Shown: one piece after another, positions 60,234 through 63,830 of the stretch
How the letters are laid out: the number at the start of each line of letters is the position of its first letter
Position numbering within the stretch: position 1 is the stretch's first letter
Assembly: GCA_949751835.1 (NCBI GenBank)
Contig: CATKHK010000004.1
Coordinates: 620,001-684,000, forward strand
Source: Blepharisma japonicum
Lineage: Eukaryota > Ciliophora > Heterotrichea > Heterotrichida > Blepharismidae
Direction of reading: 5' to 3'
DNA: 64,000 bases
Notes under the pieces: generated by a model
Database searches by the model: none
What the model was told of the DNA's origin: nothing
The model's input: the letters and a program-made list of their open reading frames with translations, nothing else
Translations under genes and position numbers: made by a program

Positions 60234-60581
60234 ATGGCATCTCCGCTGAACCTGAATAGAGAAGGAAGAGAGACTGATGAGGTAAAAACTTCACATGAGG
60301 AAAGCGAAGAAATTGCAGGAAATACAATTAGGCTAGTTATAGCGTTACCAGACGGCAGGAGAATTGAAGATGATGTAATTTAAATTCAGTTCAAAGCTGG
60401 AGTTAATATTGATTGGGTTGTCTACAAAATTTCAAGTCAAACAGATTATCAGTTTGAATCTATTGTAAGAGACATCTAGGAACTGTTTTTTGAAGGCCGT
60501 AAGCTGCTAGGGCCACTTTCTCTGGCTGATTATCCACAAATACAGAGTGGAGCATCATTAACTGCAAGAATTTTAGAGTAA
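60234..60581 (+). CDS. small ubiquitin-like fold protein
   Basis: A 105-residue protein from ATG 60234 to TAA 60579-60581 after removal of two 15-nt introns, 60375-60389 (GTAATTTAAATTCAG) and 60465-60479 (GTAAGAGACATCTAG). An acidic N-terminus is followed by IRLVIALPDGRRI (first hairpin), ELFFEGRKLLGPLSLADYP (equivalent of IFAGKQLEDGRTLSDYN in ubiquitin) and SGASLTARILE. There is no C-terminal Gly-Gly, so conjugation is unlikely. The gene is complete only in unit B; unit A has just a broken 5' part. Confidence 0.8.
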
Positions 60582-60896: not shown

Positions 60897-63830
60897 ATGC
60901 TAAAACTCGCTAGAATGCTCATCCACAGAGGTATGACTTATATAAATATGGAGCCAGAAGCTACCATCAAAACTCTGACAGCAAAGGTAAAACTCACATA
61001 GGAAATGAAAAACCTCGCAAAGCCAGAGTTTGCAAAAACCCCTGAGCTATTTTATCCCACCCAGGTCTTTTCTCAATTCGGCTTTCACCGTGCAAAATGT
61101 CCTAAGTGTGGAGCAAACTACTGGCGCCATACTGAAGCTCGTGACACTTGTGGAGATTCTAATTGTGTCGGTTCTTATCAATTCATAGGTGTTGGGACTG
61201 GCAAAGGAGCCAAAGGCAACAAAATCACCTACGCCCAAGCTTGGGAAGGCTTCAGAAACTCGCTGACGTCAGCACGCATTCCATGCACTGCAATAGAAAG
61301 GTACCCAGTTGTCGCCAGATGGAGAAACGACGTTGAATACGTAGCAGCTGGGATTTATTGTTTCCAACCTTACTGTGTGACAGGCGAAATGAAGGCTCCA
61401 GCTAACCCTCTAATTTGTCCACAATTTTCAGTGAGATTTAATGATCTAGACAATATAGGCATCACTGGGAGGCACTATTCAGGCTTCATTATGCTAGGCT
61501 TACAGGTCTTTAACTTGCCTGGTCAGTATGTATTTTTCAAAGAAGAATGCGTCGAGTTCAACCTGAGATGGCTGATTGAAGAATTACAGATCGAACCTGA
61601 CCAAATTACTCTTATTGAAGATGTCTGGGCTGGAGGCGGGAACTTAGGCCCTTCAGTCGAGTACTTTGTAGGAGGTCTTGAAGTCGGAAATATGGTCTTT
61701 ATGCAGTATAAGACTTTTCCTGATGGGTCAAGAGAAGAACTTCCAGTCAAAGTTATTGATGTAGGGATTGGACTGGAAAGAATCCCATGGCTTATCAATG
61801 GAACACCTACAAGTTACATGGACGTCTTCCAAAACGCTTTTAACTGGCTCAAAGGGAAGCTTGAAATTGATGTAAACCAAGAAGTCTGGGAAAAATTCGG
61901 CCCACTCTCATGCAGACTTAACATTGATGAAGTTGAAGATGTCGACAAGACTTGGCGAGACATCGCTGGAATGATAAACCTTCCTGTCGAAACAGTCAAA
62001 GCAGCCATTGCTCCTATTAAAGATATGTACATTGTACTAGATCACACTAGAACTGTCCTTATGATCATAGAAGATGGTTCATTACCTAGCAATGTAGGTG
62101 GTGGCGCCAATGTGAGGAACATTTTGAGAAGAGTTTTTGCCTTATTGAAGAAAAATGGCTGGTGGGAAAAACTCGGCATGGACGGACTTATTGACTTATT
62201 CCAAATGCATAAAGTCGATCTCAGAGAAATTTATGGAGATTTTAAAGAGTATAAGAGCTTTAGAAGTATCATTGAAGGAGAATATGAAAGATGGACCAAG
62301 ACAGACCAAGAACAAAGAGTCAAGCTTGAAAAATTGCTGAAGAAAAACAATGGTAAATTAACCATTGACGACTGGATCTTAGCAATGCAGTCTTGGGGTA
62401 TCCCAGCTGATGTAATCGCCCAGATATCAGGAATTGAAGTCCCTGGAAACCTTTATTACGAAATCGACTACAGAGCTCAGACCTGTGCAAAAGCTCCTGA
62501 AGTTATTCTTTATAACACTGCTCATTTGCAAGAAACTGAAAGCCTTTACTATGCCAACCATCATTTATCCCATGGCACCAGTTCAGTTGTAGAGATTTTC
62601 CCTAATGTATCCCAAGGCAACCAATTAAATATTTTAATCCTCGACAAAAGTGGATTTTACCCAACATCAGGAGGCCAAGACCACGATGAAGGAAAGCTAA
62701 TCTTTAAAGGTGAAGAATACAAGGTCCTTGATGTCCAAAAAGTCGGCCACTGTGTACTTCACATTTTAGACCATCCTATCCCAGGTGACCCAGCTGAGCA
62801 CAAAAATGCAGAAGTTGAATGGTGGATTGATATGGACCGACGCAACCAGCTCAGACGTCACCATACAGCTACACACATAGTTTATGCTTCTAGCAGAAAA
62901 GTCCTTGGCCCTCATGTCTGGCAGCATGGTGCTAAAAAAACAGTCGACAACGCCCATCTTGATATCACCCATTATCGTTCTCTTACCCACGAAGAAGAAA
63001 TGGCTATTGAAAACGAAGCCAACAGGATCATTTCTAACTGTGTCAGAATCAATAAATTCTTTATGAATAAGACTGAAGCTGAAAAAGAATACGGATTCAA
63101 CCTATATCAAGGAGGTATTGTCCCTGGAAACAGTTTAAGAGTAGTAAATATTGAAGGAGTCGACACAGAAGCTTGCTGCGGGACACATTGTGATAATACT
63201 TCTGAAGTAGGCTGGATAAGACTACTGAAAACTCATAGAGTTTCTGATGGAATTGTACGTCTTTACTATGTTGCTGGCGAAAAAGCTATTGCAAGGCTTA
63301 ATGAAGAGGATAAAGTGATTAACAATCTTAATGAACTCTGGGGGATTTCTCTTAATGAAATTGTGCCAACTGCTGAAAGATTCTTCAATGATTATAAGAA
63401 ATTAGATACCAAAGTAAAGAAGCAGGAGCTTAAACTGCTAGAATTGACGATAAGATGCATAGCTTCTGATCCTAATTATAGACTAGCTTTAGTGCAAAGT
63501 GACCAGAAAAATCCAACCATTTATTTCTCTTATTTGAAGACTTATGCACAGCTATTAAAAGACGAAGGAAAAGGAATTATTTTTGTTTCAGATAATTTTG
63601 TATATGGACTATTAGGAAATCCAAACTTGCTTAGCGTTGACGCTTTGAAAGAGCTTTTAAGAACTACTAAAGGAGAATCTGCAAAATTGGCTGTGAAAAA
63701 TAAAGTTCAAGACACTAAGAATAAGAAAGCTAAAGCTGTTGAAGACATCTGCGAGTTTAGTTATGTTGGAGAAGTTCCGGCTCAAGTTCAAGAATTTTTA
63801 AATCAACAAGGTGGAAGAACATTTGAATAA
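60897..63830 (+). CDS. AARS: alanyl-tRNA synthetase, archaeal type
   Basis: A 972-residue enzyme that charges tRNA-Ala. The start is ATG 60897; a 15-nt intron at 60987-61001 (GTAAAACTCACATAG) joins the 30-residue first exon to the long second exon, ending TAA 63828-63830. After the leader comes the N-terminal zinc module found in archaeal AlaRS but absent from bacterial and usual eukaryotic enzymes: KCPKCGANYWRHTEARDTCG followed by DSNC. Class II aminoacylation core, the editing site HHTATH and CCGTHCDNT, and a C-Ala part follow. Standard eukaryotic AlaRS begins quite differently, so this looks like lateral transfer. The first exon (MLKLARMLIHRGMTYIN) is basic and amphipathic like a mitochondrial leader. 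No UGA codon is used in it. Confidence 0.95.

What the first reader, a model, noticed from the sequence alone, without database searches (positions are those of the whole stretch)
60897..63830. Archaeal-type alanyl-tRNA synthetase in a ciliate nuclear genome
The N-terminus carries the zinc-binding Cys module (KCPKCG...TCGDSNC) and overall layout of archaeal AlaRS. Eukaryotic cytosolic AlaRS is normally of the bacterial-like type and lacks this. The gene is clearly nuclear: it has a 15-nt host-type intron and sits between ciliate genes. Archaeal AlaRS transfer to eukaryotes has been described for diplomonads and parabasalids; in a heterotrich it suggests an independent replacement or a shared older transfer.
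Basis: partly seen in the sequence, partly recalled or inferred. Interest (0 to 1): 0.75.

Follow-up and report, generated by a model that had tools for sequence, protein, structure and literature searches.

The report
Archaeal-type alanyl-tRNA synthetase in a ciliate
This single-celled eukaryote appears to load alanine onto its tRNA with an enzyme related to those of tiny DPANN archaea rather than with the usual eukaryotic one; a similar replacement in ciliates is already in print, but this copy has an altered version of the loop that normally reads the alanine tRNA's signature base pair.

Summary
Window 60897-63830 encodes a complete 972-aa alanyl-tRNA synthetase (AlaRS) in two exons with a 15-nt intron. 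It has the archaeal Cys4 module, catalytic and editing domains and a C-terminal domain, and scores far better as archaeal-type than as bacterial/eukaryotic-type. In the 45.2-Mb own genome it is the only AlaRS found. Trees place it among DPANN archaea; thin samplings were inconclusive, the best-sampled gives 98/96. Asgard archaea and other eukaryotes could not be sampled. Novelty is only partly as claimed: a 2006 paper credits Andersson et al. 2005 with AlaRS transfer into the ancestor of Paramecium and Tetrahymena, so this most likely extends a published replacement.

The unexpected part is elsewhere. [quoted passage not shown] The Tyr is present in 177 of 177 archaeal rows compared and in E. 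coli. A second near-universal Tyr (176 of 177) is Ala. Yet the host's tRNA-Ala(AGC) keeps G3-U70. Mammalian mitochondrial AlaRS, which lost this peptide, is G3-U70-independent. Whether this enzyme still depends on G3-U70 is a clean bench question. Dual cytosolic and mitochondrial use is inferred, not shown.

The parts
60897..60986 (+). exon 1 (residues 1-30)
   Evidence: translation MLKLARMLIHRGMTYINMEPEATIKTLTAK
60897..60947 (+). candidate presequence, residues 1-17, before an in-frame Met18; basic (3 K/R, no D/E in residues 1-18)
   Evidence: the DPANN rows printed start where Met18 or later residues align. Hydrophobic moment not unusual against shuffles (27% as high), so weak evidence for targeting
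60987..61001 (+). 15-nt spliceosomal-type intron gtaaaactcacatag
   Evidence: in-frame TAG if kept; its removal joins a 40-codon open stretch to the 942-aa frame
61002..63830 (+). exon 2, 942 aa, stop TAA
61098..61172 (+). Cys4 module C63-C66-C80-C85, with the one-residue insertion G87 just after it
   Evidence: Cys invariant in 33 of 33 rows; residue 87 filled in 59/61 Nano, 11/12 G359-phylum, 5/21 Aenig-phylum, 2/2 unspecified DPANN, 0/61 other archaea
61290..62771 (+). class II catalytic and tRNA-recognition region (PF01411)
   Evidence: PF01411 215.9 bits, exon-2 residues 97-590
62091..62108 (+). N394 (aligned to A. fulgidus N359) kept; A399 where 176 of 177 archaeal rows and E. coli have Tyr
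62385..62399 (+). divergent G3-U70-reading peptide M492-Q493-S494-W495-G496
   Evidence: position 492 Tyr in 177/177 archaeal rows and E. coli; 493 D/E in 169/177, Q in 2; canonical peptide and its role from PMC6451123 (passages)
62862..62876 (+). editing-site H651-x3-H655
   Evidence: invariant in A2 as H621 and H625 of exon 2; role as editing site recalled
63135..63266 (+). editing domain second part (tRNA_SAD, PF07973), includes C755-x3-H759
   Evidence: PF07973 51.5 bits, exon-2 residues 712-755; C725 and H729 of exon 2 invariant in A2
63483..63827 (+). C-terminal C-Ala-like domain without the glycine-rich motif
   Evidence: model secondary structure in 828-887 of exon 2, pLDDT under 50 at 890-923; model aligns with A. 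fulgidus AlaRS 3wqy_A over 898 columns, gaps included; sequence comparison

Best explanation
A working, nuclear-encoded archaeal-type AlaRS that descends from DPANN archaea and has replaced the ordinary (bacterial-like) eukaryotic AlaRS in this ciliate. It forms Ala-AMP in the class II core, charges the host's eukaryotic tRNA-Ala, and clears misacylated tRNA in its own editing domain, with a free-standing AlaX-like protein elsewhere in the genome. Shown: gene structure, domain make-up, archaeal/DPANN affinity, no other AlaRS found, host tRNA-Ala(AGC) with G3-U70 and A73, and an altered G3-U70-reading peptide (MQSWG). Inferred: that it is expressed and active; that it came to ciliates once and early, possibly through another protist as Andersson et al. 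2005 are said to propose for Tetrahymena and Paramecium; and that one gene serves cytosol (start at Met18) and mitochondria (start at Met1).
For: Family scores and solved relatives. Only AlaRS in 45,185,585 bases by PF01411, TIGR00344 and TIGR03683; the other matches are an AlaX-like protein and, by eye, an RRM protein. 95 of 101 positions conserved in at least 93% of 177 archaeal rows are kept, and editing-site residues are intact. Kinship: the 16 highest rows of the 80 returned by the one prokaryote scan are Woesearchaeota, Nanoarchaeota, DPANN or unnamed archaeon records, 36-40% identity; N-terminal extension (60/61, 19/21, 11/12 and 2/2 in DPANN sets, 4/61 in other archaea) and residue-87 insertion; careful mixture-model tree of 35 rows: DPANN core with window 100/100, window with ten 'cladeX' rows 98/96; AU test rejects the window outside the DPANN core, p=0.0166. 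Nuclear setting: 15-nt intron, a neighbouring gene whose frame opens on removing two more, 857-kb contig, GC3 0.353 against 0.348 next door. Other alveolates (Apicomplexa, Perkinsozoa) have AlaRS in the eukaryotic clade according to PMC11304981 (passages), which fits replacement in ciliates.
Against: The score is below TIGR03683's curated cut-off. AU tests with thinner sampling did not reject other placements: p=0.425, 0.543, 0.269; the group was named after seeing trees, and cladeX without the window is not rejected (p=0.289). One Aenigmatarchaeota-set row (L190) fell outside the DPANN core. The editing half alone is unresolved (40/49). The window keeps two segments and a C-terminal domain that most DPANN rows lack and most other archaea have. 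The window branch is long. No Asgard, diplomonad, parabasalid or other ciliate sequence was available. The own assembly's completeness is unknown. Presequence evidence is weak. The MQSWG peptide raises doubt about how tRNA-Ala is recognised.
Confidence: 0.8

Rival explanations
1. Two AlaRS exist: a conventional eukaryotic AlaRS serves the cytosol but is missing from the assembly or missed by the search, and this archaeal-type gene is the mitochondrial (or a minor) enzyme. That would also explain the relaxed G3-U70 peptide, as in mammalian mitochondria.
For: Basic N-terminal 17 residues before Met18; peptide divergence parallels mammalian mitochondrial AlaRS (PMC6451123, passages); assembly completeness unknown; the search controls are prokaryotes only.
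Against: Three profile searches of 45.2 Mb found no second synthetase, while the same profiles ring in 14 of 14 control genomes and pick up even a partial editing-domain relative. Human cytoplasmic AlaRS is close enough to E. coli AlaRS (E 3e-120) that a conventional gene should have scored.
Confidence: 0.12
2. Vertical inheritance: ciliates kept the original archaeal AlaRS of the first eukaryotes, which other eukaryotes lost to the mitochondrial one.
For: It is archaeal-type; Asgard archaea were not in the trees.
Against: DPANN-type N-terminal extension and residue-87 insertion; nesting inside DPANN in the better-sampled trees.
Confidence: 0.06
3. Contaminating or symbiont archaeal DNA assembled with the ciliate.
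For: Archaeal affinity only.
Against: In-frame 15-nt intron, neighbour with two more such introns, host-like GC3, 857-kb contig, end branch of 1.29 changes per column.
Confidence: 0.01
4. A separate, later transfer into this ciliate lineage alone, unrelated to the AlaRS of Tetrahymena and Paramecium.
For: None direct; [quoted passage not shown]
Against: Parsimony; same Nanoarchaeota/DPANN affinity as reported for the other protists.
Confidence: 0.15

Closest known systems
Archaeal AlaRS, e.g. Archaeoglobus fulgidus (PDB 3wqy) and Pyrococcus horikoshii (2zze)
   Same: Cys4 module, class II core, editing domain, C-terminal domain; 36-37% identity; model TM-score 0.71-0.78 by query length for ranks 1-8
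   Different: Extra presequence, DPANN-type N-terminal extension and residue-87 insertion, Met-Gln-Ser-Trp-Gly in place of Tyr-Asp-Ser-His-Gly (A. fulgidus), Ala for a near-universal Tyr, no glycine-rich motif in C-Ala
   Same: Grouped with the window at 98/96; L176 and L194 share the FN-x-P-x2-Y-V-[FY]-F-K loop
   Different: 12 of 12 cladeX rows have Tyr at 492; E in 10 and Q in 2 at 493
Archaeal-type AlaRS of diplomonads, parabasalids, Entamoeba and ciliates (Andersson, Sarchfield and Roger 2005)
   Same: Nanoarchaeota-like AlaRS in protists, ciliates included, as reported in PMC1484493 (passages)
   Different: Could not be compared: paper not held and no protist sequences available
Mammalian mitochondrial AlaRS
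   [quoted passage not shown] PMC6451123, passages)
   Different: Serves a tRNA-Ala without G3-U70; here tRNA-Ala(AGC) keeps G3-U70. Bacterial-type enzyme (recalled)

Membership tests
Archaeal-type AlaRS (by descent and domain plan) | Better match to archaeal than to bacterial/eukaryotic AlaRS profile | tested here: met
   TIGR03683 724.8 against TIGR00344 443.7 bits
Archaeal-type AlaRS (by descent and domain plan) | NCBIfam TIGR03683 curated cut-off (an annotation threshold for prokaryotes, not a biological definition) | tested here: not met
   724.8 against 744.7 bits
Archaeal-type AlaRS (by descent and domain plan) | N-terminal Cys4 module absent from bacterial/eukaryotic AlaRS | tested here: met
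   absence tested only against E. coli; that eukaryotic AlaRS lacks it is recalled
Archaeal-type AlaRS (by descent and domain plan) | Catalytic core, HxxxH...CxxxH editing site, C-Ala | tested here: met
   C-Ala lacks the glycine-rich motif
DPANN-derived AlaRS | Tree position inside DPANN | tested here: met
   98/96 and 100/100, AU p=0.0166 for a group named after seeing trees; thinner samplings were inconclusive; Asgard absent
[quoted passage not shown]
   Met-Gln-Ser-Trp-Gly; definition from PMC6451123 (passages)
AlaRS with canonical G3-U70 reading | Cognate tRNA-Ala with G3-U70 and A73 | tested here: met
   five tRNA-Ala(AGC) loci; other Ala isoacceptors not found
Andersson 2005 protist AlaRS clade | Monophyly with diplomonad, parabasalid and other ciliate AlaRS | not testable with these tools
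   no eukaryotic collections held; metagenome scans capped at 0
Dual-targeted AlaRS | Mitochondrial form from Met1 and cytosolic form from Met18 | tested here: inconclusive
   basic leader without acidic residues, but moment not unusual against shuffles

The most novel reading that the evidence does not exclude
The only AlaRS of this eukaryote no longer uses the canonical Tyr-Asp minor-groove contacts with G3-U70. It identifies a eukaryotic tRNA-Ala, which still carries G3-U70 and also a U6-U67 mismatch, in another way: through Gln493 and backbone contacts, a Trp-bearing loop, or other parts of the tRNA. That would be a cytosolic departure from the best-known identity rule of the tRNA code, in an enzyme of DPANN origin.
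Probability: 0.25. Interest if true: 0.72.

Novelty: new variant of a known kind. Interest (0 to 1): 0.5.

Why it matters
It most likely carries a published protist gene replacement to another ciliate lineage, which would push the transfer back towards the ciliate ancestor, and it points to a DPANN subclade as nearest kin of the source, beyond the Nanoarchaeota named in the 2005 title. It also conflicts with the statement in PMC8318970 (passage) that AlaRS of all mitochondrion-containing eukaryotes is of the mitochondrial type, provided this host has mitochondria (recalled for heterotrichs, not tested). The altered G3-U70 peptide makes a textbook identity rule testable in a new enzyme-tRNA pair.

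Tried and rejected
Contamination: rejected (intron, neighbour, GC3, contig size). Viral relatives: one IMG/VR scan matched 252 pattern stretches, none a relative. A third own-genome hit (C118, 24.4 bits) lies in an RRM-type protein by eye, not an AlaRS. First tRNA-Ala pattern found nothing; a looser one gave 15 hits, five of them Ala(AGC). A third pattern for other Ala anticodons found nothing, but it demanded T54, which the Ala(AGC) genes themselves lack, so it says little; TGC/CGC isoacceptors remain unseen. Of 63 scored tRNA matches (2483 candidates) only 30 were held as loci. The automatic 3:70 reading was wrong for Ala and for some Met copies (extra flanking bases) and was redone. Indel counts were biased by trimming open frames at the BLAST start; they were redone, with the most upstream ATG within about 60 residues as start, so the N-terminal counts still depend on guessed starts. 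The test that the window lies outside Archaea did not finish. The targeting-peptide moment test was negative. An excess of 15-nt introns across the window is only modest: 5 against 0-4 at other lengths, 7 against 1-5. Tree sets were thinned by hand for spread: 128 rows to 57, 44 and 37, 159 to 50, 179 to 35. Near-duplicates were dropped (eight, four) and the fragments L221-L228 were not used. All mixture-model trees except those are short searches.

Full report
What is there. The gene lies at 60897-63830 on the + strand. Exon 1 (60897-60986) encodes 30 residues, a 15-nt GT..AG intron follows (60987-61001), and exon 2 (61002-63830) encodes 942 residues to a TAA stop. If the intron were kept, translation would stop at its TAG. 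The gene upstream (from 60234) also needs removal of two 15-nt introns to give an open frame, so the intron type belongs to the host. Tiny, mostly 15-16 bp introns are documented for the heterotrich Blepharisma, whose UGA codes for Trp (PMC9942806, passages); here 19 of 19 Trp codons are TGG and no TGA is in frame, which fits a heterotrich with the standard code such as Stentor (standard code of Stentor recalled), but I did not identify the species. The own genome is 45,185,585 bases in 224 contigs.

What it is. Profile scores favour the archaeal family (724.8 bits) over the bacterial/eukaryotic one (443.7 bits), though the first is below its curated cut-off of 744.7. The best solved relatives are archaeal. 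A predicted structure of exon 2 (mean pLDDT 85.6, pTM 0.79) matches archaeal AlaRS entries at ranks 1-8, including the A. fulgidus-tRNA complex 3wqy (898 alignment columns). The four Cys of the N-terminal module and the HxxxH/CxxxH editing residues are invariant across 33 aligned rows. 95 of 101 positions conserved in at least 93% of 177 archaeal rows are kept. So the protein looks functional.

Is there a standard AlaRS too? Searches of the own genome with PF01411, TIGR00344 and TIGR03683 find this gene, a 314-aa frame that matches the AlaX editing family, and one weak hit in an RRM-type protein. The same profiles ring in 14 of 14 control genomes, all prokaryotes. Human cytoplasmic AlaRS matches E. 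coli AlaRS at E 3e-120, so a conventional eukaryotic gene should have been seen. Assembly completeness was not measured, so absence is likely, not proved.

Kinship. I added members of three phylum-level sets: that of a Woesearchaeota locus (273 of 279 genomes with some match, editing-domain relatives included), that of an Aenigmatarchaeota locus (76 of 76) and that of genome G359 (18 of 23). On 157 archaeal rows two sequence features mark DPANN: an N-terminal extension (60/61, 19/21, 11/12, 2/2; other archaea 4/61) and a one-residue insertion at residue 87 (59/61, 5/21, 11/12, 2/2; other archaea 0/61). The window has both. Against this, it keeps residues 205-206 (8 of 96 DPANN rows, 59 of 61 others), residues 597-600 (8 of 96, 49 of 61) and a C-Ala-like tail (31 of 96, 58 of 61). 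A lineage that left DPANN before or outside those losses would show this mixture.

Trees. With thin sampling the window joined or stood beside DPANN, but the AU test did not exclude other placements: p=0.425 for grouping with other archaea when E. coli was the outgroup, p=0.543 and p=0.269 for standing outside DPANN. After adding relatives of the nearest rows, the careful mixture-model tree of 35 rows gave 100/100 for the DPANN core with the window (one Aenigmatarchaeota-set row, L190, fell outside), 99/96 for the next node, and 98/96 for the window with ten 'cladeX' rows. Standing outside the 25 core rows is then rejected, p=0.0166, but that group was chosen after seeing trees, and the window being sister to cladeX rather than inside it is open (p=0.289). 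The catalytic half alone supports the same clade (92/81), the editing half is unresolved (40/49). The window branch is long (1.29 changes per column). Names of the cladeX genomes are withheld. Asgard archaea and all eukaryotes other than the window are missing from these trees.

How it probably works. Inferred from homology: Ala-AMP formation in the class II core, transfer to tRNA-Ala, editing in cis. The first 17 residues hold 3 Lys/Arg and no acidic residue, and Met18 lies near where archaeal proteins begin; one gene with two starts could supply mitochondria and cytosol. The amphipathicity test did not support this (27% of shuffles as high), so I give dual targeting about even odds.

The tRNA side. 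Five tRNA-Ala(AGC) loci share one body. ARAGORN's 75-nt call carries one extra base at each end; read as a 73-nt tRNA it has G1-C72, G2-C71, G3-U70, A4-U69, G5-C68, a U6-U67 mismatch, C7-G66 and A73. Among the 16 other distinct tRNA bodies in the 45 tRNA loci held (14 anticodons), none has G3-U70. So the identity pair is private to tRNA-Ala in this partial sample.

The unexpected feature. In the A. fulgidus complex the Tyr449-Asp450-Ser-His-Gly453 peptide fits the G3-U70 minor groove; [quoted passage not shown] elegans mitochondrial AlaRS, which still does, so a change at the Tyr alone need not end the dependence. In the window it is Met492-Gln-Ser-Trp-Gly496, in an unambiguous part of the alignment. 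Position 492 is Tyr in 177 of 177 archaeal rows and E. coli; 493 is Asp/Glu in 169 of 177 and Gln in 2, both in cladeX; 399 is Tyr in 176 of 177 and E. coli, Ala here. Asn394, aligned to A. fulgidus Asn359 (a G3-U70 reader by my recollection), is kept. Gln493 could still serve as a hydrogen-bonding side chain, and part of the contact is made by main chain, so loss of G3-U70 reading is a hypothesis, not a result. Whether other ciliates share the change is unknown to me.

What is known. PMC1484493 (passages only) reports that Andersson et al. [quoted passage not shown] The 2005 paper itself is not held; that the ciliate copies are archaeal-type is my reading of these passages. Apicomplexa and Perkinsozoa AlaRS belong to the eukaryotic clade in PMC11304981 (passages). 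In the listings of my ten paper searches (most capped at 15-30 rows) I saw no paper on a heterotrich AlaRS or on a changed G3-U70 peptide in a protist; most subscription papers are not in that library. Verdict: an archaeal-type, DPANN-related AlaRS by descent, a known kind of gene replacement, with a variant tRNA-reading peptide that deserves a bench test.

Noticed in passing
L123-L127 (own genome C11, C29, C39, C39, C89): tRNA-Ala(AGC) copies share a U6-U67 mismatch in the acceptor stem and A at position 54 of the T loop; no TGC or CGC Ala isoacceptor was found with the patterns tried.
   Followed up: partly
e.g. genomes G304, G326, G327, G334, G343, G348: At least 33 of the 279 genomes show only weak matches (E 1e-5 to 1e-48) to the archaeal AlaRS alignment, and six listed genomes have 585-619-aa frames matching two or three separate stretches of it: possibly a short bacterial-type AlaRS in place of the archaeal one.
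   Followed up: no
L002:1054-1998 (-), own genome C3: A 314-aa frame matching AlaX-M editing protein (107 bits, below the curated 300), a free-standing alanyl-tRNA editing candidate beside the cis-editing AlaRS.
   Followed up: partly
window 60234-60581 (+): Small gene upstream whose frame opens on removing two 15-nt introns, each with an in-frame stop; looks ubiquitin-like by eye.
   Followed up: partly
L176 and L194 (genomes G235, G296): These two DPANN AlaRS share the FN-x-P-x2-Y-V-[FY]-F-K loop with the window protein; 88 of 96 DPANN rows lack two residues there.
   Followed up: partly
PMC8318970: This 2021 paper states that AlaRS of all mitochondrion-containing eukaryotes is of mitochondrial type (passage), which this gene and the reported Andersson 2005 ciliate result contradict if the host has mitochondria.
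   Followed up: no
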